Source: Hyaloraphidium curvatum (taxonomy: Eukaryota; Monoblepharomycota; Hyaloraphidiomycetes; Hyaloraphidiales; Hyaloraphidiaceae). Taken from it: a DNA stretch of 64,000 nucleotides. The stretch spans positions 434,001 to 498,000 of the forward strand of contig JAIVFI010000010.1 of NCBI GenBank assembly GCA_025558095.1. The letters run 5' to 3'. Positions 412 through 64,000 of the stretch are shown piece by piece. The notes below the pieces were generated by a model, which worked only from the letters and a program-made list of their open reading frames with translations, was not told the origin of the DNA and did no database searches. Position numbers and translations under genes: made by a program. Every line of letters starts with the position of its first letter. Positions within the stretch are counted from its first letter, which is position 1.

Positions 412-2500
412 TTATTTGAGCATCTTGGACATGTACGGGCCATCGAGCTGCGAGAAAAGGGTCAGGAGAACATCCTCCACCATCTGCCGGGGTTGGAGCC
501 CACCTCGTAGCCGAGCTTCCGGTAGTAATGCCGCGTACCGACGCCCGAGATCACCGAGATCTTGACGCTCCCGTGCTCCTCCTTCGCTATCCGCTCCGCC
601 TCCTCCATGAGCAGCGTCCCGAAGCCCTGGTGCTGGAACTTGGTCGGATCCCGCGAGTGCACGGGCACCGCCGTCCCGTACACGTGGAGCTCGCGGACGA
701 TCGAGGTCTGCCCCGCGTCCTTGAGCTCCGGGCGAAAGGTCGTCTCCGCGGAACACTTCCTCAGCCGCAGGAGGCCGATCAGAACGTCCTGCTCCGGGTC
801 CTCGTAGGCCAAAAACGTCTCCCAGCCGCCGTTGGCGACGTAGTCCCTCCGCACCAGCTCCACCTCCTCCACGCGCACCTTGTTGTGCACCTCCTGGATC
901 CCGACCTCGCGGGTCCGCACGTCGCGGCACTCTGTGCCCAGGTCCTTCATCCGCTGCAGCGCCAGCTCCCGCACGTTGCCGTGCTCCACGCCCGAGGTCA
1001 CGAGCGGCATCGGGATGTCGCGCTGGATCCGGTACACGCGCGTCCACGGCGGGATGAGGGCCAGGATCTTGGCCACGAGGTCCACGAGCACGTTGGGCGG
1101 GTAGTTTTTGTAGCGGCCTGTGCGCCAGAGCTCGTACAGCCCCGTCCCGCGGATCACGAGGGTCGGGTAGAGCTTCAGTCCGTCCGGCCGGAAGGCCGGG
1201 TTCTCGAACAGCTCCTTGAACTGCTCGATGTCGCGCTCGATGGGCACGTTGGGCAGGTTCGGCATCATGTGCGTCACCACCTTGTACCCGGCGTCCTTGC
1301 TCAGGGCAAAGGACTCGCACACGGCCTTGACCGTGTGCCCGCGGTTCGTGTCCCTCGCAACGTCCTCGTACACGCTCTGTACCCCGATCTCGAGCCGCGT
1401 GCACCCGTACCGCAGCATCTGGCCCAGGTGCTGCTTCATGCAGTAGTCCGGGCGGGTCTCGATGGTGATGCCGATGACCTTGCTCCGCCCCTGCTCCGAC
1501 ATGCGCACGGCCTCGTCCACGTCGGCGCTCTGGAACCCCGAGCACGCGTCGTGCAGCCGCGAGATGAACCAGTCGCGGTACTCCTGGTCCAGGCTCATGA
1601 AGGTGCCGCCCATGATGATGTACTCGACCTTGTCGACCGAGTGGCCCAGCGAGCGGAGCTGCTCCATGCGCGCGCGCGCCTGCTCGTACGGGTCGTACCG
1701 GGCGCGGATCGCGCGCATCGAGGTGGGCTCGTAGCCCGTGTACGACTGCGTCGAGTACTCAAAGTCCGAGTCGGGGCCGCCGGGGCTGTCTCGCGTTAGG
1801 CGGGCCCGCGGCGGGAAAAACAAGGCGCTCGGCGCTTACCAGTAGACGCAGATGTTGCCCGTCGTGGCGATGTGCGGACACCGGTGAGGCTTGCACATGA
1901 CGGCGACGACGGCGATCTAGACAGAGGTGGGCCAGCTGTCAGTCCGACTCCACACTCCGCGGTATGTCAACGCACCCCGCTTGCGGTCCGCACTGGCCTG
2001 ACCAGGAGCCCGCTGATCTTGTCCCTCTCCTCCGGGGGCACAGCCGCGATAATGTCCACGAGCTTTGGCATGAAGCTGATCCCGTACTTCTTGGCCACGC
2101 GGGCGCGCAGCGCGTTCAGGTTCAGCGGCTTGGAGTCCGGCGGCCGCGGGGCCAGCAGCTCGCGCACGATCTCTGCGGTGCATTTGACCAGCCGCGCGTG
2201 CGCGTCGGAGGAGCCCTGCGGCTCTGTCGGGGGGAAGGTGACGGCCGGTGCGGGGCCGATGCCGGCCGGAGCGGGGCGGAGGGGCGATGAGACCGGGCAG
2301 ACGATTCCCGCGGGGTCGACGCCTGCCTTTCCGCTGCGGCATGGCGCCGTCCGGCCGGGAGGACGGAGTGGAGTGGATGAAGGGATTGGATTGGATTGGG
2401 TTAGCGCGAGGGTAGGTGACTGTGCGTCCGTCGACCTCGCCCGCTGCCCGCACTTCCACCCCTCCTCGACCGCGCCGGTTCCCTCCGGAATCCGCCGCAT
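412..2500 (-). CDS. ELP3: Elongator complex catalytic subunit Elp3
   Basis: Elp3 is the radical-SAM/acetyltransferase subunit of Elongator, which makes cm5-type modifications on tRNA wobble U34. Four exons are inferred: up to 1976, 1916-1840, 1785-504 and 447-412, with introns of 59, 54 and 56 nt. Splicing restores PVRTASG/IAVVAVM, the cluster motif [14 protein letters not shown] (C-x9-C-x2-C, split by an intron in the last Cys codon) and the C-terminus KLGYE/LDGPYM. The GNAT domain near the end shows [12 protein letters not shown]. The conserved body starts near 2200 with [10 protein letters not shown]. The ATG at 2500 is the only in-frame one upstream and adds about 100 low-complexity residues, so the true start may instead lie on a missed small exon. 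The RPL8 start is only 45 bp away on the other strand. Confidence 0.92.
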
Positions 2501-42684: not shown

Positions 42685-42924
42685 CTTGGCGTCGGTGGCG
42701 GATGGAGGGCGGCGGCCGGGCGGGTCGTGAAAGAGAGAATGGAGGACGAGGAAAAAAGCGCCACGCTCGGCTCCCGCTTCCCGGGCGCTCCCGATCGCGT
42801 TCCCTTATCGGGCCCAGCAGGCCCCTTCCCGCGTCACGGCCATAAATCATGATCTGACGCGCCGTAGCCCCCTCTTGTCGGCTGCTGGCACGTTTCGGGG
42901 GGCAGCCAGGCCGGCCGCAGGGCC

Positions 42925-44121
42925 ATGGGAGGCACCAGCTCGGCCTTCCACAAGGCCGCCGAGGCCGGGGACGTCAACCAGCTGCGGGAGCTTCTCGACG
43001 GCCCAAACCCGCCTCACGTTGACTCGGCGTGTGACACTCGCTACAAATGGGCCCCGCTTCATTACGCCGCGTGGGCCGATCGCAGGGAAGCGGTCGAGTT
43101 CCTCCTTTCGCGGGGCGCCGACATCGAGAGGCGTTCCGGCACCGGGTGGACATTCACCGGGGACCAGAGCCCGCTCTTGGTAGCTGCAGCAAAAGGCTGC
43201 GCTGCCGCGGCGGACATTCTCCTCGCCGCCGGGGCCGACACGGCCGCGCGGGACGACAGTGATCACACATCACTGCATTATGCCGCGGCAGCGACGGGAT
43301 CGGAGCGCCTGGTCGCCCTCCTGCTCGCACGGGGCGCGTCGGCCGACGCCAGGCGGAAGCCCTCGGACACCACGCCGCTGGACGACGCCCTCGAGGCCGG
43401 CGCGATGGAGAACGCGCGGCTGATCCTCCGGCTGTGCTCCCCCGAGACGGCGCTGCGGGCGCTCGAGGCCGGCGTCCGCGGCCTCAAGGCGGCCCGCGTC
43501 GCTTTCGTGTGCGCAAACGCCACGGGCGCCTCGCTTCCTCCCGAACGCCTGCTGGCGCTGCGCGACTCTATGGAAGCCGACGAGACGAGGGCGCTCGCCG
43601 ACGCGGCGGGCAAGGCCGCCCGTGCCGCCGAATCCCGCCGCAAGCTGAGCGAGCTCTCGACCTCTGCGATTGGCGAGCCCAATCCCGCGCGCAAGGCGCT
43701 GCTCGAGGCGCAGGCCGCGGCGGAAGCCCAACGCGCCGCCGCGCTGTCCGAGAACCAGGCGCGCGACGCCGAGCGGTCCGTGGACAGGCGCAACATCATC
43801 CGGTCCCTGGACTCCGCCTGGCGCGCGCGCAGGAACCCCGCCCCGCAGGCTTCCCCGCAAGCCGCCTCGCTGCCCGACGCCCCGCCGATCACCCCGCCGG
43901 CCCCCGCCGATCCCGCACATGCCGCGGCACCCTCCGACCCCTCGCGGCCCCCGGACCTCGCCTCGCCCTGCCCCGTCTGCCTGGACCTCGCCAAAGACGC
44001 CGCGATCGTGCCGTGCGGGCACCTCGTCTGCGCCCGGTGCGGCGAGCTGTGCCGCGCGTCGGGGCGGGGGTGTCCGGTGTGCAGGGGGGCCGTGGGGGCC
44101 GTGATGAGGGTGTACGGGTGA
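42925..44121 (+). CDS. Ankyrin-repeat RING finger protein (putative E3 ligase)
   Basis: Intronless, 398 residues. N-terminal ankyrin repeats: FHKAAEAGDVNQLRELLDG, PLHYAAWADRREAVEFLLSR, PLLVAAAKGCAAAADILLAA and TSLHYAAAATGSERLVALLL. A helical Ala/Arg-rich middle follows, then a Pro-rich spacer. The C-terminus is a C3HC4 RING: CPVCLDLAKDAAIVPCGHLV, CARCGELC, GCPVCRGAVG, the class that recruits E2 enzymes. The ankyrin part should select substrate. The start Met precedes GGTSSAFHKAAEAGD by only a few residues, so there is no room for a targeting sequence; a possible N-myristoylation site (MGGTSS) is present. Likely a cytosolic ubiquitin ligase. Confidence 0.87.
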   Translation: MGGTSSAFHKAAEAGDVNQLRELLDGPNPPHVDSACDTRYKWAPLHYAAWADRREAVEFLLSRGADIERRSGTGWTFTGDQSPLLVAAAKGCAAAADILLAAGADTAARDDSDHTSLHYAAAATGSERLVALLLARGASADARRKPSDTTPLDDALEAGAMENARLILRLCSPETALRALEAGVRGLKAARVAFVCANATGASLPPERLLALRDSMEADETRALADAAGKAARAAESRRKLSELSTSAIGEPNPARKALLEAQAAAEAQRAAALSENQARDAERSVDRRNIIRSLDSAWRARRNPAPQASPQAASLPDAPPITPPAPADPAHAAAPSDPSRPPDLASPCPVCLDLAKDAAIVPCGHLVCARCGELCRASGRGCPVCRGAVGAVMRVYG

Positions 44122-47204: not shown

Positions 47205-49667
47205 ATGATACCGACCATGCCTCGAAGCATGCCCATTCTCGCAATCTCCGCCGCACTCCTCCTCCTCGCCGCGCCTCCCCCGGCCTCGGCCGCGCTCCCG
47301 GCCCCCGGCGGCCCCCTCGCCGCGGCCCTCGCCAACAACGCGCACTCCCTCGCGCTGCTCAAGCGGCAGCGGCCCGAGGACTGCCAGTGGTGCCCCGACA
47401 GAGAGACCGGGATCTGCGTGTACCTCTCGTCGAACGTCGCCCACTGCGGGAAGTGCGGCGCTCCGTGTTCAGCGGGCGAGTTCTGCTACATGGGGAGGTG
47501 CAGGACGAACGAGGGTGCGTCTCCGGCGGCACACGGCCGGCACGGATGAAACTGACCCCCCTCCGCGATGGTTAGCCTGGTGCGCCGAGCAGGGCTACCA
47601 GTCCTGCCCCGGCACCCCCGACTTTGCCTGCCTCTCCGACACCACCCCCGAAGCGTGCGGCACCTGCGGCACCGTGTGCTCCGGCGCGACGCCCTACTGC
47701 CAGGGCGGCCGCTGCACGCAGTGCCTCGACGGCGACCTCGTCTGCGGCGGGGTCTGCACCGCCCTGGGCACCGACAACTGCGGGTCCTGCAACCGCGCGT
47801 GCCCGAACGGGACGTACTGCAACGTCTACGTGGACGGCAAGATGAACCCCGGACCGTACGAGTGCGTCCCGCTCGAGTGCGGGTTCGGGACGTCGTGGTG
47901 CCCCGGCCTCGGGTGCGTCGACTTCCGGAACAACGACCGGCACTGCGGGGGCTGCAACGCCGCGTGCGCCGCGGGGGAGCAGTGCCTCGCGGGCGAGTGC
48001 CGCCCGTGCAACGCGACCGAGGGCGGCGCCTCCTGCGGCGGCAGGTGCACGAGCCTGCGCACCGATTCCAAGAACTGCGGATCTTGCGGACGTGCTTGTC
48101 AGTTCGGGGAGATGTGCTGGGAGGGCGAGTGCGGGTGCCCTTCATATGCGCAGGGCCCCGCGCCGCCGAACGTCGTGGACTGCCCCCTGGGCAACGGCAC
48201 CGTCGAGCGGTGCGTGGACCTGGCCAACAGGGGCGACCACTGCGGCGCATGCGGGGCTCGGTGTCCCTCGAAAGAGACGGGGAGCCAGTGGATGGGGTGG
48301 TGCGACAACGGGCGGTGCGACTGCTACCCCCCCGGGACCGGGTCGCGGTACACGCCCTCGCTCACGCTGTGCGGATCGGTATGCACGCCCACGGAAACGG
48401 ACGGGGAGAACTGTGGACGGTGCTCCAATGTCTGCGGGCCGGGGCGGGCGTGCCACAAGGGCGAGTGCTTCGCGTGCGAGAGGCTGGGCATGCTGGCGTG
48501 CGCGGGGATGGACGGGACGTGCATGGCGCCGGGCGAGTACGATTACCGTTGCCCTGCGGGGTCGCTGTACACGAGCACGACCGCGTCGACGGCGGGGACG
48601 GCGACCGCGACGGGGAGCGCGACGACCGCGCGGCCGACCGAGACGGTGGCGCCGCCGGCGTTTGCGGTGCCGCCCGGCAACGCGACCTGCATGCGGTCGT
48701 GCCCGGACAAGGGCAACTTCCTGCTCGTGCGGCCCGTGCTGCTGGAGGGATCTAGGCTGGCGACGGTGCAGTGCATCGGGCCGGACGGGGGCAAGTGCGC
48801 GTGGTGGGTTGCCTGCGGGTCCTCTTCGTGGGCCGTTGAAGGAACGTCGCAACTGATTCGCTGCTCTGATAGGTTCACGGATGCGGAGTGCCGCAGCGTC
48901 GCGCCGGGCGAGTCCGCCCCCGCGCCCTCGTACGACGTCGGCTACCTCTGCTCGCAGAATACGGCCGGATGGTGCGGCGCCGCCTACGGTTACCTTTGGA
49001 CCGCGCCCGGCACGCCGATCCCTGGCAGCTGCCCCGCGCCGGCGCCGCCTACCTCGACGGAAGCGGCCGTTTCGGCGGGTTCCTTTACGTGCGTGCGGTC
49101 GTGTCTGGACAAGGGAAACTACCTGCTGGCAAGAACGCAGGTGGAGAGGGTGTCGTCGGTCATGACGGTGCAGTGTTCGGGGACCTCGCCGACGTCGTGC
49201 GGATGGTGGGTCCGCCGTCGCCCTTGTCTCGACCTCGATTGACCATGTCGCTGCCCAATTCCAGGTTCTCGGACGCCGCGTGCACCCAGGTCGTACCCGG
49301 CGAGACGGGCGGCGGCGCCTCGGGCGTGGCCTGCGCGCAGGTCGAGGACGGATGGTGTCGCGCGGCGTGGAACGTCGCCGCGCTGGGGCTGCCTCAGCAG
49401 AACTGCAGCTTCGTGCCGACGGCGACGGATTCGGGGGCTTCGGCGACGTCGGCGCCGAGGGAGCCGACGAGGGGGAGCGGGGCGACCGCGGCGGGGACGC
49501 CTTCTTCTACGGGGGCGCCGACGGCCGCGGCCACGCCGTCGGGCTCGCCAGCGGCGGTTTTGACGACGACGAACGGGAGGCCGAGCTCGGCGGGCAGGGT
49601 GCTCCGGGGCGCAGGGTCGTGGGTCCCCGTGCTGCTTTCTCTCGGCGCCCTCATCGCGTGGCCTTGA
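47205..49667 (+). CDS. Cys-rich Stig1-like repeat surface protein, probably GPI-anchored
   Basis: Three exons, 47205-47514, 47576-49205, 49265-49667 (introns 61 and 59 nt). After a signal peptide (PILAISAALLLLAAPPPASA) come about seven repeats of the form [N/H]CGxCxxxC...C...G.C, for example HCGKCGAPCSAGEFCYMGRC, NCGSCGRACQFGEMCWEGEC and NCGRCSNVCGPGRACHKGEC, close to the Stig1 pattern. Then follow a Thr/Ala-rich spacer and two copies of another Cys module (CMRSCPDKGNFLLVRPVLLE; CVRSCLDKGNYLLARTQVER). The C-terminus is a Ser/Thr/Ala stalk ending in a hydrophobic tail (GSWVPVLLSLGALIAWP), as for GPI anchors. The second intron falls inside the second module, exactly where the first module reads through. 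Likely a disulfide-rich cell-wall or adhesion protein. Confidence 0.8.
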
Positions 49668-49904
49668 TTTCGGGTCTGTTTATGGCACATCTATGGACAT
49701 GGACATTGCGAGCTGACTATCGTGGCCATCATGTAATACCTATGACTATGAAGCGATTGTTCATGAGGCCTGCAGTGTCGGAGAACTGTCCGCGTACGTC
49801 CGCTAGTCCGGGAGCTGTCATCGCAGAGCGAGCATCTTCCATTTGAAATGCAATGCGGCTGCCGGGCGGGCATCGCACTCTCCTAAGCGCTGGTAATGAG
49901 CGCA

Positions 49905-51335
49905 GAGACAAATATCGCAATCCGCCTTCAATCGATGGAGAGCCCGCCCTGTCTCCCAGGGCGGGGGGCGCCCGTTCCGGGGGCTCAAACGGCTGCCAAA
50001 AAGGGCGAATGCAAATGCGTGACCCCCCGGAGGCGGCAGCCCGGGCAGCGAGCTAGCTGTGGAGAGTACTCGATTCGCCGCATCGCGATGAGCTAGGGTA
50101 GAGCTGGGTTAAGAAGTACATAAGCCGGCGGCATCCGAATCTGAGACCTGCCCAATTTCGACCTCAATCAACGGCACCCTCCCCCGCCCCCGCGCCCCGC
50201 CGCCCCGGGCCGGCGTGCCCCCCGGCTGTTGCCCGTGCACGGGCGGACACGTGCGCGGCGGGGCGCCCGCGGGGTGGCGCTGGCGGCGGCGCACGGCCCA
50301 TTGTTTGGGAGGGCGTCGGGAGGGGGGGTGCCGTCCACGCGTGGGGGCGCACGGCAAGGCAGGTGCGCACGCATCAACGCAGAGATATCGCGCTAATATT
50401 GCGTTCCCTCCAGGCCGATCGGACGCCAGGGCGGCAGGGCGGCAGGACCGGGTAGGGGGGTGGTCCGTGGAGGATCCCTGCGGCTTCGGCCCCAGCAGCG
50501 TCGCCCGGTGATCCGTCCCGCCGCAAGGCGCGGGCGGCAGTGGGGACGCGAGCTGCCCTGGGCCCAACAGCAAGGCGCGCAAGGTCGACTCCAAGCGCCA
50601 ACGTCAAGCTCAAGCACGAGGCGGCCAGCTTGCCGCATACTAACCACCACCCTCCTCGCAGCGCAGCGCACCGCATCCGCATCCGTCGACGAGGTGGCAA
50701 GGCATCCAGCAATCCAGCATCTCCAAGTGTCGGATGTGGGGTCGGCTGCGGCCGGCGGGCTCTGCCCGGCACCCTCCACCACGCGTCCGGCGCGGCGTCG
50801 TGGGGACGGTGCAGCCCGAGACCGGCTCCGAGGCAAGCGGCAAGGCGGCAAGGCCAAGTGTCGGATGTGGAGTCGGCCGATGGGCTCAGCCCCGACTGTC
50901 CGCGCCGGCGAGCGGCGGGCAATCAGTCGTCCGAGACCGGCTCCAAGCGACCACCTTCGGCCCTCAAGCACAAGGCGGCCGGCTTGCCGCATTCTAACTT
51001 TCCGCCCTTCCACACAGCGCAGCGCCCCGACCTCGGCAAGAGCAAGACCGGGTAGGAGGGTGATCCGCGGGGGACCTCTGCGGCTTCGGCCCCAGCGCGC
51101 ACGCCCGCTCGACCCTCCTGTCTTTCGGCTAGGAGGCACCGGGGTGCACAGCTGCTCCGGACCCGCGAAGAACCGGCCTTTCCAGCAGGCACGCGCAAGA
51201 ATGGGTAAGGGGGCGGTCCGCGGGGGACCTCTGCGGCTTCGGCCCCAGCGCGCACGCCCGCTCGACCCTCCTGCCTTTCGGCTAGGAGGCACCGGGGTGC
51301 GCAGCTGCCCTGGGCCCACCGGCAAGATCATCTCT
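49905..51335 (-). repeat. GC-rich dispersed repeat, copy B (inverted relative to 27.5-29.2 kb)
   Basis: Reverse-complement counterpart of the repeat at 27.5-29.2 kb. The unique part (about 49.99-50.44 kb) is nearly the same as copy A. The tandem part (about 50.44-51.33 kb) is rearranged: it has the CTGCGGCTTCGGCCCCAGC core near 50.48, 51.08 and 51.24 kb, two near-identical ~170-bp units at 51.05-51.33 kb, and a stretch near 50.70-50.95 kb with TCGGATGTGG repeated that copy A lacks. The TATA-like site of copy A reads TTATGTAC here. No coding frame is credible. Strand is given so that copy A is plus. Confidence 0.7.
49998..50084 (-). ncRNA. Candidate structured RNA block, copy B
   Basis: Reverse-strand match of the ~90-nt block in copy A. 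The possible closing stem (positions 50073-50079 with 50004-50010), the CATCGCGATG hairpin and a terminal run of five T (50002-49998 on the minus strand) are kept. The sequence diverges from copy A directly after the T-run. The upstream TATA-like box has one change (TTATGTAC), so this copy may be less active or dead. Same caveats as for copy A. Confidence 0.3.
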
Positions 51336-51596
51336 GTATGTAGATCAGAACAATAGAGTTAAGCCGTCACTACTTCAGAATCTATGCGATGTCCGCTTTA
51401 CCAACGTCGTGTTGCACAAGTCTGGGTTGTCGAGGCTGTATTATCAATGGATACGAAGGAGCGGCTTTCCGAGACGATCTCCGAAGCAGTGCATGGAAGT
51501 CCGGCGTGATCGCGGCAGAGGCCCGTCATCATTCGCGGAGCTGCTTTCGCAGCTGTCAAAGCGCTGCTCGGCGAAGTCACTGCATCGCCGGCACAA

Positions 51597-52868
51597 ATGG
51601 GATCGCGCCTGACTGAAGCGGAGGCGCGCGCGATACCGCCGCTGCTCGAGCTGCCGCCCGAGGTGCTGCGAATGGTGCTGGACGAGCTGCCGCGCCGCGA
51701 CGCCGCGGTGCTGCTGCGCGTGCACTCTGCACTGCTCGCGGCAGCCTGGCCGGCCGTGTGGGCGCACGTGGACGCGACCGACCGGGCGGGGCGCGGAACG
51801 CTGCGTGGCGTGGTGCGGACCGGCGCGCGGGAAGCACGGCGGACCGGATGCGCCCGTACCGCGCGGCGCCGTGTCCTCCGTCACATACCGCGGCGGCCAC
51901 GTCACGGATCTTGCGCCATTGCTGGAGTTTTGCGGCACACATCTGCGAATGCTGGACGTGGGAGACTGCGAGCTGGGACGCGTCGCGCTGGGCACGGTCT
52001 TGGCCCTCGTGCGGCCCGATCTCGACGAGCTTGCGATGCCGCTGTCGCCCGCACGTGCTGCAGCCGGGGTCGAGCCGGATGCCGGGGAAGTCGGCGTTGC
52101 GTTGACGCGTTTCCGGAGCCTGCGGCGCCTCAACGTCGCCGGGCGGATGCTGTCTGCCCTCGAGATGGCCGCCGTGCGGGCACTGCCGCTGCAGTCGCTG
52201 ACTACGAGCGAAGAATCGTGGATTTCTGAGAATGCTTGCGTCGCTGCACGTTCGTTGGTGGGCCTCGCTCTCGACCGTCCGCTTCGCGTCTTGTTACGAT
52301 GTCGGCATCGTCGGCCTGCTGCCGGCCGCCCTGGTCAGCCTGGAGCTCATTGTGCCCATCGATGCCGACCGCATGGAGGGGCTCTGCACGCTGTTGCGAC
52401 AGGTTGCCGAGCTGCCGGCTCTTGAAGCTATGATCCTGGGCGATTCTCTGAAGAACGGGCTCTTCCAGCCCGGCAAGCTCTTCTTTGGACAGATTCGCGA
52501 CCTGCTGAAGAAGGAGCGGCGAGGCGCAAGCGTACGCCGCCCTCAAGGCCCTGCCTGCCGGTGCAGTGCCGCATCTCCGCTGGCTCGAGATCCGTTCGCG
52601 CGGGTTCAAGATGGAGTGGCTGCAGGGTATCATCGAGGCCATGCCGAAGCTGTCCCGCTTCCTCTGCATCGATCCCGCCGTGACGACGAAGGCAAAGGAC
52701 AGGCTGATCCGCGCAAAGAAGGAGCTCGACGACCGCAGCATCCGCTACAACATCGATACCAACCTCGGAACGGGGCGTTTTGAAGCCTGGGAACGGCAAG
52801 GCCTCCGCGTCCTGGCCAGCGATCACTTGATCCGCGTGCGGCTTGTGGAAACCGGAAGCCGCCGGTGA
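51597..52868 (+). pseudogene. F-box/LRR-like gene with three +1 frameshifts
   Basis: The ATG at 51597 leads into a clear F-box (LPPEVLRMVLDELPRRDAAV, LLRVHSALLAAAWPAVWAHV). LRR-like reading then continues in three successive frames: VTDLAPLLEFCGTHLRMLDV and FRSLRRLNVAGRMLSALEMA; then YDVGIVGLLPAALVSLELIV and LPALEAMILGD; then AVPHLRWLEIRSRGFKMEWL to the stop at 52868. Each switch (near 51.85, 52.27 and 52.53 kb) needs one extra base removed, and no GT-AG intron of normal size fits. All switches that lie in the duplicated block are shared by the right-hand copy. So either it is a pseudogene that decayed before duplication, or the assembly has repeated indels. If intact it would be an SCF adaptor of about 420 residues. 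Confidence 0.6.
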
Positions 52869-53961
52869 TCGGAGGACGGAGGCGGTCTGATGTGCGAGGC
52901 TGGATTCGAGCAGGCTGGTTGCCTCCGCAACGTTCGGCAAGTTGCGCCGACCGGACACACAAAAGAGCGACGGGCCAGACACCGCATTCGTGCCAACGAG
53001 GCTGTGTTCGATTGGTGATGGCTGTTTCAGGATGCGTCAGTTCGAGAGCTAAGTTCGAGAGCTCAGTTGGAGAGTCTGTTGCTCACCTCCGAATTCTGGT
53101 CTCTTCTCCCCGCGTGGCAGGAATACATTTCTCAACCATTGCTTCTCTTATCCGCCTCGAAAATGCCTTTCGTACCCAGGATCTTCCACCGTGTCCGGCA
53201 ACCGCCCACCACCTCCACCCGGGGATCGAACGTCCGACCACCAAAGGATTTCCTGCAAGTCTAGACAAATGCCTCCTCGAATTGGGGATCGCTCCAGCAT
53301 TAGAATGTGTGCTGTGCGGAAGTGCGCGGTGGTGCTGCAAGCTCCGATCCCCTCGGCTGCCTACGCGTTCCCGGTCAGCGGCAGCATTTCCGTGACGCGT
53401 CGCCGAATCCATGGCTCCGGCGCTTACGGGCTCTGGATCTTCAAGCTCTGGGCAGCGCGAAGTGGCGACGCAGCAGAAATGTGCGACCGCAGAAGGATCT
53501 GCGACCGTGCGCGGACTTCGCTCGGGCGCTGAGCCGCAATTGGAGGCCATCGCGGAGGCTACTTCCCGAGGGGTCGCGCTCTTCCTGGCCTGGGATCTCA
53601 AATCGCTCGATCCCGCACCCGCATCCACCGAGGACTGCGCCTGAGCTGCATCGCGCTCTACCTGCGCGAATCCCGGCATGGTAGACCGGGAACCAGTCGT
53701 AACGTTGTCCAACGTGGTTTCCCCAGGTGCTCGTTCGGGGTCGAGGATGCGAGATGGTAGATCGCCGGATGTACTTCAACTTTCAAGCACGTGCGTTCAC
53801 CATCACAACAACCCCCGAATCCTCGCCCAAACACAGGCCCGCGCCGGTTCCTCGGGCCCGCGAAAGCCCCGCACGGCGCTCGCGCCGGCATCGTCTCCAT
53901 CTGGGCGGCAGCGGGGGAGCGGCTGCGGCTGCCCGGGCGCAACGCCCTCCGTTGTTTGCGC
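52017..53961 (+). repeat. Left arm of inverted segmental duplication
   Basis: Positions x here pair with 116017 minus x on the right arm (62,056-64,000), in inverted orientation, over 1,945 bp. Every stretch compared is identical, and frames on both arms translate identically. The inner edge is sharp: 53,961/62,056 still pair, the next bases differ. The left arm continues left of 52,017, but its partner is beyond the window end. Contents: the 3' two thirds of the F-box/LRR gene, then about 1.1 kb without a secure gene (52,869-53,961; a 77-codon frame at 53,411-53,644 is possible but unsupported). Confidence 0.92.
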
Positions 53962-54038: not shown

Positions 54039-54971
54039 ATGGATCCATTAGGACAACCTTTTACGGAGGATGTGGGCGGACTGCGCCCTGCTTCTGGCGT
54101 AACTCACTTCAAGACCAGGTATCCCAGCCAAACCAGCAGGGAGCTGTGATTGCCCGACTTCTCCAGCGAAACGCTTCGCTCAACGCTTCTTTGTCCGCGA
54201 AAGAACAGACCATCTCTGAACAAAGGCAGACCATACACGACCTCGTACAGCAATTGAATGAGCAAGGAAGCTCCATAGCAAAGCTCAAGACTGATGCGAC
54301 GACGGTCCAACTGGAGCACAACAAGGAGAAGGCGCATTTACAGGAATGCATCTACAATCTCAGGAATCGTGTGGCAGAGCTGACCGGCGCTTGTTCGCCT
54401 GTGGTGCTGCGAACGGTCCTAGGTAAATCAACGTTCACTTCCTTGCTTTGCTTCCTATTGATGCGCTGATCGACAGAGGACCTTTTCGGGCGCTTGTTCG
54501 CCTGTGGTGCTGCGAACGGTCCTAGGTAAATCAACGTTCACTTCCTTGCTTTGCTTCCTATTGATGCGCTGATCGACAGAGGACCTTTTGAGAATAGTCT
54601 GTGAAAACGATTATGGTCCTGAGTTGGCCGCCAAAATGACTAAGACCGACCGCGCGCACTACGTTTTTGGAGAGAACCCGCCGATGGAAAGCGCCGCCTC
54701 AAAAGTTCAAGAGTATCTGGGACACAAATTCGCGAAGATCGAGTGGGAGGATTTTCAAGGGCCCTACGCGGAGTTCAATGCCCTTCAGTCAAGGCGGGAA
54801 TTCCTGAAGTGGTTGTACAGCGACCTCTCTGCCGGATGCCACACTACCCCATTCGAAACATCGTGGGAGAAGATAAAACCATTCTGCACAAAAGCGATTG
54901 AACGACTCTTCTTCCCGTTGGCGATCGACCTCATCAACGATCTCAACAACGTGGAGGAAGTTGATGTCTGA
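54039..54971 (+). CDS. Coiled-coil protein, unknown
   Basis: ATG 54039 gives MDPLGQPFTED, spliced (intron 54072-54118, 47 nt) to VSQPNQQGAVIARLLQRNAS and a long coiled coil with heptad-like spacing (LSAKEQTISEQRQTIHDLVQ, LNEQGSSIAKLKTDATTVQL, EKAHLQECIYNLRNRVAEL). Exon 2 ends at 54422; joining to 54580 keeps frame (VVLRTVLG/EDLLRIVCENDYGPELAAK) and leads into a globular C-domain (YLGHKFAKIEWEDFQGPYAE, FLKWLYSDLSAG, FFPLAIDLINDLNNVEEVDV), stop at 54971. The intron contains a tandem copy of the exon-2 end and of itself (see 54386-54589). AT-richer than flanking genes. No family recognised. The start lies 78 bp inside the core from the duplication edge. Confidence 0.62.
54386..54589 (+). repeat. 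103-bp tandem duplication spanning a splice donor and acceptor
   Basis: Two identical units of period 103 bp (54386-54488 and 54489-54589). Each contains the last 37 nt of an exon, a GTAAAT donor (54423; 54526), a 54-nt intron and the CAG acceptor (54476; 54579) with GAGGACCTTTT. Confidence 0.93.
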
Positions 54972-55036: not shown

Positions 55037-58000
55037 TTACATCGTTTCGTATTGGTACAAATGCTCCGGATACGTCGCTTGGAACTCCAGAATGAGCGCT
55101 CGGAGGGCGTAGTTTGGCGTCAGCACGATCTTTGTCTTGCGACCATCCTTGTCGTGAGTGAGCGGGACCTGCGTCATCGGCGACGTGCCGTTCTGCTTGA
55201 GCCAGTTGCGGATAGCATCTTCTTGATACGTGTATCCATCCGGAGCGACGACGGGATGAGACATGATCTAAGGCACAGTTCCGTCAGTTTAGATCCGCGA
55301 TAGCGCTGCCGAAACGTACCGTCCGGGTGATGGGGCAAACAAAGTGGCCAGGAACCTTGATTGGTTGCCTTGCGATGTGCATCTGAGCCATCGTAGTAAA
55401 AGGCTGGTATGCTTGCTGGACGATGTAGGCGGAACCGTCGGCCGCCGTCATGTAAACTTGTCTCGACAGATCCGGCTGCTGCGACACGGCTTGGCCGTGT
55501 GCGATCTGTTGCTGCGATCCAAAGAAGTGCTGCTGACCTTCGACGGCTTCACCGGGCTCTTCCTCGCTCGCTTCTTCGGAGTCACCGTAACCGCCTGCGT
55601 CAGACATGCCGTTCGTCGAGTCCTCCGGCAGGGACTTCATCGACTCGCGCAGCTTCTTGATCCCTTCCTTCAGCTTCAACATGGGTCCCAGAGGGAGCTT
55701 CAAAGCACGGAAGTCCTCATCTGATGCCAACATGAGCGACTCCATATCGAATTCGTGCTCCTCAAAAAGCTGGACGAATCGAGCGAGCCCGACGGTTCGA
55801 AGAAAGTCCGACAACTTCGTTTCGCCCGAAGAGGGGGCCGGAGGAGGCGCACTACGCCGAGGAGCAAACTCGGATGCACGCTTCGCCTGAGCCTCAGGAG
55901 GAACAGCCGGTTTGGAGATTCTCTGCGGAGACTGCGAGGCCGGCTGCTTTTGCTGCGGTGCAGAAGGCTTGTCGAGGGGATGCTTGAGACCAGGCGGCGC
56001 CGCCAACGGCCGGCGGGCTTCGACATTCTTCTCTTCGGTAGTGCGAGATCCTGCGTCGTCATTTCGCCGGCTCAGGTTGGGAATGGTCGGGGAAGGCATG
56101 TCCCAAAGCGCGGCAATTTCCTGCGATTCGATAGGAGAGACTTTCTTGGCGACTTTGACCGACTCGGTCTCGTCAGCCACGAACGATGCCGTCTTCTCGG
56201 CAGCCTTGTCCACTTCCGAGGGAGCCGGCGCTGCGATCGGAACGACGGGATTCTTCGTGATGATAATGTTCAGTCCGTTCAAAACAGAATCGCCATCGGT
56301 CCGCGCGAGCGGTGTCGGAGGAGCTGTCGGCAGGGCGGGCGCGGCACTGCTTCCAGGCTGAACGGGCTGCGCTGGCTGCCAAGTGTGCATGCTCGAGAAC
56401 CAGCATCGCACCGCGTGAACACAGGACCCGTCGGGATTGACGCGCGTGCACTTCTTCGACGCCTTCCAGATACCTGATCTTTGCTGGCTTGAGTGCGGCG
56501 ATGCCTTCGGGGCGCCCTTCGCCGACTTGGGACTCTGGGCCGTTGGGACGTTTCCGCTTGCATAACGGTCTTCCTCCACAGGCAGCGAACCAGAATCAGA
56601 TTCCGGTTTCGACAAAGGCTCCTGCCTCCGTGACGGTGTCTCGTGGCGCGCTGCCGGCTCCTCGATACGGTTCGCTTGCTGCGCGATGCTCGGTCGCTCG
56701 ATCGCGCGCCGTTCAGGAGACAAAACATCCGACAGCTGAGACACTTGCTCCGAAGCAACAGTAGAATCCGGCAAAAGCGCTGAAGTCGTATCCTGGGGTG
56801 CAACGACGTGTTGTGCCGACACGGACGCCTCCGCAGTAGAATTCTGCTGCCGCAATGGCGCAACCTTAACTTCGCGATCCGCACTCTCAAGCTCGGCAAA
56901 GTCATGCTCCTCAACCGGGATCTCCGCGACGTCCACGACCGGAAAGGGTGGGCTGAATGATGTCGTTGCAAAGGCTTCCCCATTTGCCGATCCCGATGCG
57001 GAGGCAACTCCTTCGCTCTCAGTCGTGTCGCTGCTTTCCGAAACCCTTGTAAACTCGGAGATCGAGGTGTCGTTGCGAGCGGCGTCCTCGCCAACGGTCT
57101 CGGAAGAGTGCTCCGGAGTCCAGGATCCCATGCGCGCCGCCACTTCCAACGAGGCAAGCTCGGCTGCCTTTTCGGCCGCGCGCTTTTCCTTGGACACCTT
57201 GGTCTTCCATTCTGACTCGCGCCGTTTCCGTTCCCTCTCCATCTTGGCGTGCATCCCCGAGATCTTTCCCAGCCACGTCCCAAACAGCTCCGGCCGCAGG
57301 TGGCATGCGCGCAAAACCTCGATTGTCCTGTCGTACGGCTGAATCTCCCGCCATTTCGGCGCGTAAACCATCTCTGCGGTATCACCCTCCACGTCCGAGC
57401 GCTCAAAGTCGCTGGCCCCCAGCGCAGCAATCTCTGACGGGGTCAGCAAGTTCTGCACCTCCTGATCCATTACAATCTGCAACAATGGCACCGATTCGGC
57501 AAGGTTGACGATGGTTTGGTAGATAAGATTACGAACGGCCGGGGCCAGTTCGTTCGCAGAAGGCCACTCGAGCACGTCCTGCGCGAAATCGGAACCGGCG
57601 TCATCGGGCCTTCCTGCACCCGACAAAATGTCCCGGACGCCCTTCTGAAGCATAGTGCGCCACGTCGCGAGCTCCATTTTGGCGTACTTGGCCCTCGAAA
57701 GCTTCGTGTGCACTGCCTCTGCGCGGTCCATGAAGGTCCGGTTAGCGCTGTTGCGCTTCATGATGGCAATGATCCCCCGAATCTGCCCGATGAGTTCGTC
57801 CAGCTTTGTCATGGACTTCGAGCCCGTCGAAAGCTCCGCTTCAATGCTGGCAATTTCCCGATCCCACTCGTCCCGCAGAGCAGCGCGCCGCGATTCCTCC
57901 TTCTTGGCGTATTCTCGCTCCCTCTCCGCGCGCTCTTCCTCCAGATCCGGGACGTAGATCCTAAGCGGTTGCGACGGTTCTCCTGCGGCGTGATCGTTCA

Positions 58001-59265
58001 CGGCCGTCACCGAGAAATCGTAAAGTCCGGGCATCAGCGGCGAGGTCTGGTACTGCGGATGCTTGACGGATCCCATGTTGTTCGTGGTCGACTTCCCGTG
58101 CCCAATCGGGTGCACAGTCATGGTGACGTTGTAGAACTTGACGCCAAGCTGCGCGTGGAACAGTCAGGAGCGGTTGAAACGATGGAAGCAGTGAGAACCC
58201 ACGTTCTCTGCTTCTGAGCACGTCCACCGGAGCCAATAGATGGTGTCGCCTCGATGCCGGTCCGTGACCTTCGTTCCGAATATCTAGACGTGACCCATAA
58301 TGGCATCAAGCGCCTCGGGAACAAACAGGACACAAGCACACCTCTGGCTGCGTACACCTGTGCGGAACGCCGCCCATGAGCCTGAATCTGGGAGCTTGCG
58401 GCCCGTCCGGAGTTGCAGGCGTCGCCTTTTGCTGCGCCCGGGTCGCGCGCTGCTGATCGCTCTTCGAGTCGTAGTGGTCGTCGGTCTTTGGCCGATGAGC
58501 TTTCACGAACTCCGCATGGTCATTCAGCTGCAGGTATTTCTTCCGCAACGATGTGTCCGAAAGCACGGCGTAAGCTTCCTTTAGCTCCTGGAAACGGCGC
58601 GTGTCGGCCTCGGTGCTATGCGGGAGCCTGTCGGGGTGCATCCGAAGCGAGAGGGAACGGTACGACTTCTTCACGGCTTCGAAAATGGCAGCGTCCAACG
58701 ACTCCTCCTCCTTTCGCAACTCTTCCATTGCCTTGTCGAGCGTCTGCACCTGCACGCGAGCCGAGTAGAGATCCGAGTTCGTCTTGGCAAAGGCCTGCAG
58801 CGGGCTCATCCCCGGATACAACTCCGCCATGGTCTGCACGGTTTTGGAGAGCGTTTCCTTCTGCTTATCTGCTCAGATCAGTTCCAAAGGCAGATCTTTA
58901 TGAGAAGAGTCCACCAGACAGGAGATCAGACGCCTACCGAACTTGGTCCTGTCTCCTACCTCGTCCCGCGAAGTCGCCTTCTTCTTCGCGGCGGCCGCCT
59001 TGACCTCTTCCTCGAGTTGCTTCCATTTCGTCGTTGCCTTGTGCCGTTCCTCCGCGTCCTTGGCCGCCTGCCTCGCGGCGACGTGCTCATGGGCGAGTTT
59101 GAGCTGCGAGCTTACAACCCCGAAAAGCTTCCGATACGCGTCCGAGAAAGCGGCATCCGCGTCAAGCTCCAACGTGCGAAAGTACGGAAGAACGGCCGGC
59201 TCGCTGCCGTCCCCCGCCCGGGCGGTGGGCCCATCGGACCGAGCGGAGCTCGCGTTCTTTGACAT
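55037..59265 (-). CDS. J-domain / FN3-like / SAM / U-box multidomain protein
   Basis: Five exons, all joins phase 0: 59265-58960, 58860-58342, 58283-58203, 58148-55320, 55267-55037; 1,321 residues. In order: Lys/Ala-rich N-terminal helix; J domain (about 160-215) with the HPD tripeptide in YRSLSLRMHPDRLPHS and FQELKEAYAVLSDTSLRKKY; a fibronectin III-like domain (about 265-362; TIYWLRWTCSEAEN/LGVKFY, PGLYDFSVTAVNDHAAGEPS, LRIYVPD); a coiled coil (EEERAEREREYAKKEESRRA); a helical middle and long disordered Ser/Pro region; a SAM domain (about 1081-1140; LSDFLRTVGLARFVQLFEEH, LGPMLKLKEGIKKLRE); and a C-terminal U-box (about 1236-1310; FVCPITRT/IMSHPVVAPDGY, AIRNWLKQNGTSPMTQVPL). Predicted: an Hsp70-recruiting ubiquitin ligase for client proteins. 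Each domain is clear; the fusion is supported by continuous frames and good splice sites, but the 58342 donor (GTGTGC) is the weakest. Confidence 0.8.
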
Positions 59266-59561: not shown

Positions 59562-60780
59562 CTACCGTAGGCTCTTGAGCATCCGCGTCGTCTCCCGCAA
59601 CATAGAGGCCTTGTCGTTCCAGTCCCTCCTCAGCCCGGCAAGCTGCTGCTGCGCCTGGCTCTTGCGCCACTCGTTGTTGCCCCTCGCCACATCCTCCTTC
59701 TCGGCGATCTTGCCCTGCAGCTCCGCCAGCTCCGACTCGAGCCGGGCCAGCCGCTCTTGCAGCTCCGCGCGCCTCGCCGCCTCCTCGTCCTCGCCACTCT
59801 CGTCTTCCTCATCCTCGTCCTCGTCCTCCGATCCGTCCCGGTCCTCGCCCGAAGCTTCGTCCGCAATCCCCATCTCCAAGTCATTCGCCAGCCTGTCCTC
59901 GTCGAAATCGTCCGAGTCGTCGCCGCCAGCTTCAGTGCCACCATCCTCGACCACGTTGCGGGGAACGGCGCGCCACTGCGTCGTCACCTCGAAGGCGAGC
60001 TTGTCCTTGCGAAGCAGACGCTCTACCTCCTTCTCCACCGATTCGATTTGCTTGGAAAATGAGGCGGTCAGTACAAAGAGTCTCGAGCAACGAAAGCAAT
60101 CAGCGCACCTTCTTGATCTGAGGTTTCCGAAACCGTCTGTTCACCACGTTCTTGAGCGGAGGCGTCAGCCCATCCTTCAGCTCGTATTCCTCTTTCCCCG
60201 GTTCCGGCAGGTCCTGCGCGGCCGGCGGCTCCATTCCTTCGACCACAAGCACCTGGTGCACGTCCGCAATCTTCCACCATTGCACCCTATCGTGGCTTTT
60301 CCACGACTCGACAACGGCGGGCAGGTCCTTGAGCGTTGCGCGGTAGCTGTGACCGTCCAGGGAGACAGTTGCTCGGCGATCCGAATGGAAGCGCACACGA
60401 AAGGTTTCCGGAGGCGGCGCCTGGCCGTCTGCGATCAGGGAACGGAAGCGGTCCGCCATCTCGGGGTCCGGGAGGCGCAAGACAAAGTGCTGCTCGGCGC
60501 GGTCTTCGTCGCCGCCGATAACGCGTCCGCCGACCTTGAGCTTTATGTTTGTGATCTGTTTCGGCTGCCTCCGCGCCTGACGCTTGGGTTTCGGGCCCGA
60601 CGGTGGAGATGCGCCCACAGGAGGCGGGGAACGCGGGGTAGGAGCCGGCTTAGCCCGCGTCTGCCGCACTGTCGAAGGCAGCGCGCGCGCATATTGGCCG
60701 CCAGGCGTGGCCGCACCGCCTTCTACGGGCCACGGCGAACCCGGGACCGCCGATGGGCTGAACGGCGCTGGGCTCTCCAT
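59562..60780 (-). CDS. TAF7: TFIID subunit TAF7
   Basis: General transcription factor TFIID subunit (TAFII55 family), nuclear. Two exons, 60780-60109 and 60050-59562 (58-nt intron, CCAAG acceptor), 386 residues. After a Pro-rich N-terminus the TAFII55 domain reads EQHFVLRLPDPEMADRFRSL, RFHSDRRATVSLDGHSYRAT, LKDLPAVVESWKSHDRVQWW, KIADVHQVLVVEGM and the invariant GLTPPLKNVVNRRFRKPQIK. The exon join keeps the helix IKK/QIESVEKEVERLL. The C-terminal half is acidic (EDEDEDEEDESGEDEE) followed by a coiled coil (RAELQERLARLESELAELQG), as in fungal TAF7. Same strand as the J/U-box gene, which begins 296 bp downstream of its stop. Confidence 0.93.
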
Positions 60781-61170
60781 GCTGGCGACCCTTCCGCGCG
60801 TTCAAAAGCAATCCCAACGACGAAGATTGTAGCGGTTACTGGCTCAAAGGTGCCGAATCCATAGCATTGAGGCAAAGTAAAGCGGAGTAGAGGATTGCGA
60901 TTTCCTGGTTTGGGGACCTGCACCCAGACTCATACAGTATAAATGGGTAAAGGTCACCATAAGGTCCCCAGAGCGGGGTCGGGTCGGGGCGTCCGCAAAA
61001 GAATCGACAAATCTAAAAAGAGAATTAAGGTCAAATCTACAGAGAGAATTAAAGTCATACATGTCTGTCTCTGACTCTGTCCGCGATGGACGCCCCTGTC
61101 GGCGTTAAGGAGTTCAAATACTCGGGAGAGACGCTCGAGCTGCGGCTTCAGCGAAGCGGAGCTGAAAGAT
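60781..61170. other. Intergenic, AT-richer stretch
   Basis: 390 bp between TAF7 and the next minus-strand gene's stop. It has a TATA-like CAGTATAAATGG near 60,937 and a degenerate direct repeat around 61,011-61,058 (AGAGAATTAAGGTC and AGAGAATTAAAGTC). No gene recognised. Confidence 0.45.
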
Positions 61171-62055: not shown

Positions 62056-64000
62056 GCGCAAACAACGGAGGGCGTTGCGCCCGGGCAGCCGCAGCCGCTC
62101 CCCCGCTGCCGCCCAGATGGAGACGATGCCGGCGCGAGCGCCGTGCGGGGCTTTCGCGGGCCCGAGGAACCGGCGCGGGCCTGTGTTTGGGCGAGGATTC
62201 GGGGGTTGTTGTGATGGTGAACGCACGTGCTTGAAAGTTGAAGTACATCCGGCGATCTACCATCTCGCATCCTCGACCCCGAACGAGCACCTGGGGAAAC
62301 CACGTTGGACAACGTTACGACTGGTTCCCGGTCTACCATGCCGGGATTCGCGCAGGTAGAGCGCGATGCAGCTCAGGCGCAGTCCTCGGTGGATGCGGGT
62401 GCGGGATCGAGCGATTTGAGATCCCAGGCCAGGAAGAGCGCGACCCCTCGGGAAGTAGCCTCCGCGATGGCCTCCAATTGCGGCTCAGCGCCCGAGCGAA
62501 GTCCGCGCACGGTCGCAGATCCTTCTGCGGTCGCACATTTCTGCTGCGTCGCCACTTCGCGCTGCCCAGAGCTTGAAGATCCAGAGCCCGTAAGCGCCGG
62601 AGCCATGGATTCGGCGACGCGTCACGGAAATGCTGCCGCTGACCGGGAACGCGTAGGCAGCCGAGGGGATCGGAGCTTGCAGCACCACCGCGCACTTCCG
62701 CACAGCACACATTCTAATGCTGGAGCGATCCCCAATTCGAGGAGGCATTTGTCTAGACTTGCAGGAAATCCTTTGGTGGTCGGACGTTCGATCCCCGGGT
62801 GGAGGTGGTGGGCGGTTGCCGGACACGGTGGAAGATCCTGGGTACGAAAGGCATTTTCGAGGCGGATAAGAGAAGCAATGGTTGAGAAATGTATTCCTGC
62901 CACGCGGGGAGAAGAGACCAGAATTCGGAGGTGAGCAACAGACTCTCCAACTGAGCTCTCGAACTTAGCTCTCGAACTGACGCATCCTGAAACAGCCATC
63001 ACCAATCGAACACAGCCTCGTTGGCACGAATGCGGTGTCTGGCCCGTCGCTCTTTTGTGTGTCCGGTCGGCGCAACTTGCCGAACGTTGCGGAGGCAACC
63101 AGCCTGCTCGAATCCAGCCTCGCACATCAGACCGCCTCCGTCCTCCGATCACCGGCGGCTTCCGGTTTCCACAAGCCGCACGCGGATCAAGTGATCGCTG
63201 GCCAGGACGCGGAGGCCTTGCCGTTCCCAGGCTTCAAAACGCCCCGTTCCGAGGTTGGTATCGATGTTGTAGCGGATGCTGCGGTCGTCGAGCTCCTTCT
63301 TTGCGCGGATCAGCCTGTCCTTTGCCTTCGTCGTCACGGCGGGATCGATGCAGAGGAAGCGGGACAGCTTCGGCATGGCCTCGATGATACCCTGCAGCCA
63401 CTCCATCTTGAACCCGCGCGAACGGATCTCGAGCCAGCGGAGATGCGGCACTGCACCGGCAGGCAGGGCCTTGAGGGCGGCGTACGCTTGCGCCTCGCCG
63501 CTCCTTCTTCAGCAGGTCGCGAATCTGTCCAAAGAAGAGCTTGCCGGGCTGGAAGAGCCCGTTCTTCAGAGAATCGCCCAGGATCATAGCTTCAAGAGCC
63601 GGCAGCTCGGCAACCTGTCGCAACAGCGTGCAGAGCCCCTCCATGCGGTCGGCATCGATGGGCACAATGAGCTCCAGGCTGACCAGGGCGGCCGGCAGCA
63701 GGCCGACGATGCCGACATCGTAACAAGACGCGAAGCGGACGGTCGAGAGCGAGGCCCACCAACGAACGTGCAGCGACGCAAGCATTCTCAGAAATCCACG
63801 ATTCTTCGCTCGTAGTCAGCGACTGCAGCGGCAGTGCCCGCACGGCGGCCATCTCGAGGGCAGACAGCATCCGCCCGGCGACGTTGAGGCGCCGCAGGCT
63901 CCGGAAACGCGTCAACGCAACGCCGACTTCCCCGGCATCCGGCTCGACCCCGGCTGCAGCACGTGCGGGCGACAGCGGCATCGCAAGCTCGTCGAGATCG
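62056..64000 (-). repeat. Right arm of inverted segmental duplication (continues past window)
   Basis: Inverted, apparently base-identical copy of 52,017-53,961 (coordinate sum 116,017). Begins sharply at 62,056 and still matches at the last base of the window, so the full arm is longer than 1,945 bp. Between 62,056 and 63,148 no gene is secure. Confidence 0.92.
63149..64000 (-). pseudogene. F-box/LRR-like gene, right copy (3' part, frameshifted)
   Basis: Inverted twin of the gene at 51,597-52,868; the stop lies at 63149-63151 on the minus strand. Only the LRR-like part is inside the window; the F-box end would lie beyond 64,000 if the arm extends that far. It carries the same two +1 frame switches as the left copy (near 63.49 and 63.75 kb). 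Confidence 0.58.

What the first reader, a model, noticed from the sequence alone, without database searches (positions are those of the whole stretch)
55037..59265. J-domain, FN3, SAM and U-box in one protein
I see an HPD J domain, an FN3-like domain, a SAM domain and a C-terminal U-box in one 1,321-residue model. CHIP joins Hsp70 to a U-box through TPRs; here a J domain would recruit and stimulate Hsp70 directly, with SAM for oligomerisation. That would be a new layout for chaperone-linked ubiquitination. The domains are seen; the single-gene fusion depends on inferred introns.
Basis: partly seen in the sequence, partly recalled or inferred. Interest (0 to 1): 0.75.

Follow-up and report, generated by a model that had tools for sequence, protein, structure and literature searches.

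The report
J-domain fused to U-box ubiquitin ligase
A probable swimming-spore fungus has what looks like one gene joining a part that switches on the Hsp70 chaperone to a part that tags proteins for destruction; the parts are clearly in the DNA, but that one RNA joins them, that it works, and that nobody has seen it before are not shown.

Summary
On the minus strand, 59265-55037, five exons with four GT-AG introns (69, 58, 54, 52 bp; typical for this genome) give 1,331 aa. Pfam finds U-box (9e-15), DnaJ (2e-12, HPD intact) and SAM (5e-6); the FN3 is weak (at best 8e-4, below cut-off) but its fold is supported. FN3 half, SAM and the first part of the U-box share one 943-codon exon, and the U-box score rises from 42 to 62 bits when intron 4 is spliced, so the FN3-SAM-U-box chain is solid. 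Only the link to the J-domain exon rests on inference; codon usage and the lack of a start codon before mid-FN3 favour one gene. New points: the J domain lacks a recognisable helix I (helix II is modelled as one 55-residue helix); the FN3 is followed by a three-helix bundle, inconclusively BAG-like; the same genome has an ordinary CHIP. Best reading: an Hsp70-recruiting U-box ligase working beside CHIP, SAM as assembly part. SAM-U-box pairs are known (WDSUB1); I found no J-U-box protein in the papers searched, but no eukaryotic protein database could be searched, so novelty is untested. No function was tested.

The parts
58938..59265 (-). exon 1: ATG, helical N-terminal region (aa 1-109), no domain found
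   Evidence: open frame, best codon score of all exons; no Pfam family above cut-off
58342..58868 (-). exon 2 (aa 110-285), carries the J domain
58534..58680 (-). J domain, helix II - HPD - helix III (aa 173-221); HPD at 58638-58630
   Evidence: Pfam DnaJ 2.3e-12; own-genome HMM 47 bits; fold match to J domains
58639..58803 (-). single long helix (aa 132-186) running into the HPD loop, where canonical helix I + II would be
   Evidence: AlphaFold2 model, pLDDT mostly above 90
58203..58283 (-). exon 3 (aa 286-312), first recognised strands of the FN3-like domain
   Evidence: GT-AG borders; adding it raises the fn3 score from 17.1 to 19.9 bits
57960..58238 (-). FN3-like domain (aa 301-375), interrupted by the intron 58202-58149
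   Evidence: Pfam fn3 0.05 in the full protein, 8e-4 isolated; Foldseek FN3 matches mostly prob 0.96-1.00
55320..58148 (-). exon 4 (aa 313-1255), 943 codons open without a stop
57624..57941 (-). three-helix bundle after FN3 (aa 382-487)
   Evidence: AlphaFold2, pLDDT about 80-92 over most of it, single sequence; best fold match AtBAG1 Z 9.5 but CorA and others tie
55647..55817 (-). SAM domain (aa 1090-1146)
   Evidence: Pfam SAM_1 5.4e-6; best solved relative USH1G SAM E 3.6e-9
55037..55267 (-). exon 5 (aa 1256-1331, stop TAA)
55079..55355 (-). U-box (aa 1244-1318), interrupted by the intron 55319-55268
   Evidence: Pfam U-box 9.2e-15; 42 bits exon 5 alone, 62 bits when spliced
58869..58937 (-). 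intron 1, GT-AG, 69 bp
58284..58341 (-). intron 2, GT-AG, 58 bp: the inferred link between the J-domain exon and the FN3 exons
58149..58202 (-). intron 3, GT-AG, 54 bp, with CTGAC branch-point-like motif
55268..55319 (-). intron 4, GT-AG, 52 bp, with CTGAC branch-point-like motif

Best explanation
It is one protein-coding gene of a fungus (probably zoosporic) for a class-C-like J-domain protein that carries its own U-box ubiquitin ligase. Most likely mechanism: the FN3-like domain and/or the flanking helical regions bind particular clients or a site in the cell; the J domain calls an Hsp70 to that place and triggers its ATP hydrolysis so that it grips the client; the U-box at the far end of a roughly 430-residue, low-complexity and probably flexible linker brings a charged E2 enzyme, so that the client (or the Hsp70) is ubiquitinated; the SAM domain gathers several copies or docks to a partner. 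Shown by sequence: HPD-containing J-domain core, SAM, complete U-box, order of domains, ordinary introns. Inferred: one transcript, Hsp70 stimulation, E3 activity, clients, flexibility of the linker, role of SAM and FN3.
For: Three domains above curated cut-offs. FN3 half, SAM and U-box start in one uninterrupted 943-codon exon, and the U-box is split by an intron whose removal raises its score by 20 bits. The predicted frame is best in all five exons among the sense frames and no intron frame looks coding. Intron lengths of 52-69 bp match those deduced in five other genes of the genome, 52-72 bp, GT-AG, most with a CTGAC/CTAAC-like motif. A separate downstream gene would have no ATG before aa 322, in the middle of the FN3-like domain (sequence). 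The J-domain core folds as helix II-HPD-helix III, with J domains filling most of the best fold matches. The HPD and basic helix II (KKSYRSLSLRMHPDR) are the Hsp70-contacting elements in known J domains, and the CPI...P pattern of the U-box fits E2 binding (family knowledge).
Against: No transcript. No relative with the same order was found, but no eukaryotic collection could be searched (searches cover prokaryote genomes and viral contigs only). The exon 2-exon 3 splice is the weakest of the four: three splice choices keep the frame and score alike. FN3 stays below the Pfam cut-off. Canonical J-domain helix I is not recognisable, so Hsp70 stimulation may be altered. The genome already has CHIP, so this chaperone-ligase is not needed for the general task. 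No biochemical data.
Confidence: 0.5

Rival explanations
1. Two neighbouring genes: a short J-domain protein (exons 1-2, ending at the in-frame stop at about 58306) and an FN3-SAM-U-box ligase starting downstream.
For: Exon 2 runs open to a stop about 35 bp beyond the proposed donor; intron 2 has three near-equal solutions; exon 3 is only 27 codons with the weakest coding score.
Against: Only about 143 bp lie between the stop and the exon 4 frame; the first ATG of the second gene would be at aa 322, cutting the FN3-like domain in half; exon 3 in frame raises the fn3 score from 17.1 to 19.9 bits.
Confidence: 0.13
2. One gene, but the ligase is not chaperone-driven: the helix-I-less J-like hairpin is a structural or targeting part (as J domains are in radial spokes and mitochondrial complexes), and the protein is a SAM-assembled, FN3-targeted U-box ligase of the WDSUB1-like kind.
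For: Canonical helix I not recognisable and helix II fused into one long helix; J domains built into radial spokes, flagellar repeats and ciliate complex I are among the fold matches; SAM-U-box proteins without any chaperone part are known (PMC3087547); the genome keeps CHIP and has the flagellar gene PACRG.
Against: HPD and basic helix II are kept, which is unexpected if Hsp70 binding had been lost.
Confidence: 0.3
3. The three-helix bundle after FN3 is a BAG domain, so the chain would carry J (ATPase trigger), BAG (nucleotide exchange) and U-box (ligase) in one molecule.
For: Best fold match is AtBAG1 bound to HSP70 (Z 9.5, rmsd 2.1, 91 residues), with AtBAG4 Z 8.3 and AtBAG1 alone Z 8.1.
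Against: CorA, alanyl-tRNA synthetase and designed bundles score alike, and Z under about 13 is not telling for bundles; no BAG match in Pfam, while the two ordinary BAG genes of this genome are found easily at 9e-13 and 3e-10; no alignment to them.
Confidence: 0.06

Closest known systems
CHIP / STUB1 (TPR - coiled coil - U-box)
   Same: C-terminal U-box and a part that brings in Hsp70 in the same chain
   Different: Hsp70 is held through TPRs on its EEVD tail in CHIP; here a J domain would act on the ATPase side. CHIP inhibits Hsp40-stimulated ATPase (PMC8299108), a J domain would stimulate it. No TPR here. The genome has its own CHIP.
WDSUB1 and related SAM-U-box proteins (Monosiga: two SAM plus U-box)
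   Same: SAM before a C-terminal U-box (PMC3087547)
   Different: WD40 repeats in WDSUB1 against J, FN3-like and helical regions here; orthology not tested
HSJ1 / DNAJB2 (J domain plus ubiquitin-interacting motifs)
   Same: a J protein wired to the ubiquitin system in one chain
   Different: HSJ1 reads ubiquitin on CHIP clients (PMC4192669); this one would write it
DARTAGNAN of stramenopiles/alveolates (DIX-like plus DnaJ)
   Same: a J domain joined to a self-assembling domain in zoospore-forming microbes (PMC12077222)
   Different: no ligase part; DIX instead of SAM; other lineage
Class C J-domain proteins
   Same: J domain with unrelated further domains and no G/F or zinc-finger region found
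   Different: canonical helix I not recognisable; no J-U-box member found in the papers searched

Membership tests
J-domain (DnaJ/Hsp40) proteins | HPD motif between helices II and III | tested here: met
   Pfam DnaJ 2.3e-12, HPD invariant among 16 J domains; fold match to J domains
J-domain (DnaJ/Hsp40) proteins | helix I (YYxxLGV type) packed on helices II/III | tested here: inconclusive
   profile match starts at position 15; no such motif just before helix II; model shows one long helix, but its alignment carried no helix I rows; exon 1 gives no hit
J-domain (DnaJ/Hsp40) proteins | stimulation of Hsp70 ATPase | not testable with these tools
   needs biochemistry
U-box ubiquitin ligases | complete U-box domain | tested here: met
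   Pfam U-box 62 bits, positions 1-69 of 73; U-boxes of CHIP, PRP19 and plant PUB12 found by sequence in PDB
U-box ubiquitin ligases | E2-dependent ligase activity | not testable with these tools
   needs biochemistry
CHIP/STUB1 | N-terminal TPR domain | tested here: not met
   no TPR in Pfam, while the genome's own CHIP shows TPR and U-box
WDSUB1 | WD40 repeats before SAM and U-box | tested here: not met
   no WD40 in Pfam
WDSUB1 | SAM followed by C-terminal U-box | tested here: met
   definition from PMC3087547
Fibronectin type III domain | match above curated score, seven-strand sandwich | tested here: inconclusive
   19.9 bits against 25; fold of its second half matches FN3; the spliced domain could not be folded
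SAM domain | match above curated score | tested here: met
   27.1 bits against 23; USH1G SAM 3.6e-9
SAM domain | polymerisation through mid-loop and end-helix surfaces | not tested
   only nearest relatives listed
BAG co-chaperones | BAG sequence profile and fold | tested here: inconclusive
   no profile match; fold Z 9.5 tied with unrelated bundles

The most novel reading that the evidence does not exclude
A first single-chain ligase that both triggers Hsp70 on a client (J domain) and ubiquitinates that client (U-box), with SAM-driven clustering, working beside CHIP in a fungus that probably makes swimming spores; in its strongest form a BAG-like bundle would add nucleotide exchange, so that the Hsp70 cycle and ubiquitination are run by one molecule.
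Probability: 0.3. Interest if true: 0.75.

Novelty: new variant of a known kind. Interest (0 to 1): 0.52.

Why it matters
Cells sort Hsp70 clients between folding and destruction with separate J proteins and ligases. A natural fusion of the two would define a client path in which loading onto Hsp70 leads straight to ubiquitination, and it would give a simple reagent to test how J-domain action and ubiquitin transfer are coupled. If the J core without canonical helix I still works, it also shows what is the minimum of a J domain.

Tried and rejected
Paralogues of the J/FN3/helical part or of SAM-U-box in the same genome: none beyond single-domain similarity. Relatives in prokaryote genomes and viral contigs: none, as expected for a eukaryotic gene. 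Helix I hidden in exon 1 (LPYFRTLELDADAAFSDAYRKLF looks J-like by eye): not supported, a J profile made from the genome's own J domains does not pick it and shuffles score higher. BAG domain after FN3: only a fold-level, tied match, no sequence support. Taxonomic placing by 18S: no match to the pattern used; two Rfam SSU searches failed on the server and still counted; chitin synthase, Zn2Cys6 transcription factor and PACRG used instead. Literature for J-U-box or J-RING fusions: none found. Early splice models with wrong borders gave stops and were discarded.

Full report
Setting. The window is contig C10, 434001-498000, of a 31.9-Mb, 55-contig genome. It is a fungus: a Zn2Cys6 transcription factor with the fungal-specific domain lies in the window and the genome has several chitin synthase matches; it also has the flagellar gene PACRG, so it is probably a zoosporic fungus. 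No species was identified.

Gene model. On the minus strand I find exons 59265-58938, 58868-58342, 58283-58203, 58148-55320 and 55267-55037, giving 1,331 aa. All four introns are GT-AG, 69, 58, 54 and 52 bp. Five introns deduced from conserved proteins elsewhere in the genome are 52-72 bp, GT-AG, most with a CTGAC/CTAAC-like motif. A codon table from eleven other J-protein reading frames of the genome scores each exon highest in the predicted frame (0.30, 0.21, -0.08, 0.06, 0.03, against -0.28 or less in the other sense frames), and the introns score negative in every frame. The antisense frames of the exons are lower too. The low-complexity middle of exon 4 scores near zero, as biased composition would.

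Domains. Pfam: U-box 9.2e-15, DnaJ 2.3e-12, SAM_1 5.4e-6, all over the curated cut-offs; fn3 0.05. Isolated and spliced, fn3 reaches 19.9 bits, E 8e-4, still under the cut-off of 25. An AlphaFold2 model of aa 313-640 (single sequence, mean pLDDT 60) shows the last strands of a sandwich that Foldseek matches to many FN3 domains with probability mostly 0.96-1.00, although the E-values are only 0.05-0.25, and then a three-helix bundle with pLDDT about 80-92 over most of its length.

Is it one gene? Exon 4 is a single open stretch of 943 codons holding half of the FN3-like domain, SAM and the first residues of the U-box. The U-box is completed by exon 5: 42 bits for exon 5 alone, 62 bits when spliced. 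Thus FN3-SAM-U-box is one unit. The J domain is tied to it only through intron 2 and exon 3. For this: exon 3 in frame raises the fn3 score from 17.1 to 19.9 bits; exon 4 has no ATG before aa 322, which lies inside the FN3-like domain; the gap between the alternative stop of exon 2 (58306) and the exon 4 frame is about 143 bp. Against: three alternative borders of intron 2 keep the frame and score alike. I hold one gene at about 0.85.

J domain. The core helix II-HPD-helix III is clear, and J domains of DNAJB8, DNAJC5, DNAJB12 and others are the best Foldseek matches; in VIA-align J domains fill most of the leading rows, with Z 6-7 over about 60 residues, though a long-helix protein ties with them. 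But the profile match begins at position 15, no YYxxLGV motif stands just before helix II, and the model (16-row alignment, mean pLDDT 86) has one helix of 55 residues running into HPD. The alignment rows given for that model lacked helix I on purpose, so this is a strong hint, not proof. A J-like look of exon 1 was tested and not supported.

SAM and U-box. The SAM domain is nearest, among solved structures, to USH1G/SANS and ANKS4B, then ANKS3, ANKS6 and BICC1. The nearest U-boxes in PDB by sequence are bacterial LubX and plant PUB types, then CHIP and PRP19. Within the genome the nearest U-box is that of a U-box-VWA protein (family).

Context in the genome. The genome has an ordinary CHIP (TPR + U-box), a UFD2-like gene (by eye), a U-box-VWA protein, 43 J-domain matches, some of them parts of one gene, and two BAG matches. 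The gene under study has no paralogue. So it is an addition to, not a substitute for, the CHIP system.

Known things. SAM-U-box is an established pair: WDSUB1 has WD40-SAM-U-box, Monosiga has SAM-SAM-U-box, and others have SAM-U-box alone (PMC3087547). J domains linked to the ubiquitin system are known in HSJ1, which reads ubiquitin (PMC4192669). CHIP binds Hsp70 by TPR and inhibits Hsp40-stimulated ATPase (PMC8299108). Odd J fusions with assembly domains occur in stramenopiles and alveolates (DARTAGNAN, PMC12077222). Phrase searches of 5.39 million papers found no J-U-box or J-RING fusion; this is weak evidence of novelty because protein databases could not be searched.

Mechanism. By family knowledge, HPD plus basic helix II contacts Hsp70, and the U-box recruits E2. 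In one chain joined by a long low-complexity linker this would couple client loading to ubiquitination. FN3-like and helical parts would choose the client or place; SAM would cluster or dock. All functional steps are inferred. The main rival is a WDSUB1-like ligase in which the altered J hairpin is only structural. A BAG reading of the three-helix bundle cannot be excluded but has no sequence support.

Verdict. Observation confirmed; interpretation partly supported; a new variant of a known kind, with novelty among eukaryotes still to be tested.

Noticed in passing
window 49369-53961 and 62056-64000 (continuing to contig C10 position about 500650): Inverted repeat of about 4.6 kb, 99% identical (first 2.4 kb without a mismatch), flanking 8.1 kb that holds the gene under study and a TAF7-like gene; could permit inversion, or be a recent duplication or an assembly effect.
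   Followed up: partly
window 51510-52226 (+): Frame inside the left repeat arm with a weak F-box match (E 0.007, under cut-off).
   Followed up: no
window 59562-60801 (-): TAF7 (TAFII55 N-terminal domain, E 9e-33) directly upstream, head to tail, about 300 bp from the start of the gene under study.
   Followed up: no
window 54386-54589 (+): Perfect tandem pair of 101-bp units within a coiled-coil-like plus-strand gene candidate (54100-54971) with no convincing Pfam family.
   Followed up: no
L003 (C32:79813-79962, -): U-box followed by a VWA domain in one gene: another unusual U-box layout in this genome.
   Followed up: partly
window 42868-44118 (+): Ankyrin repeats followed by a C-terminal C3HC4 RING, XBAT-like layout.
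   Followed up: no
window 465-1835 (-): Radical SAM plus GNAT acetyltransferase frame, Elp3-like.
   Followed up: no
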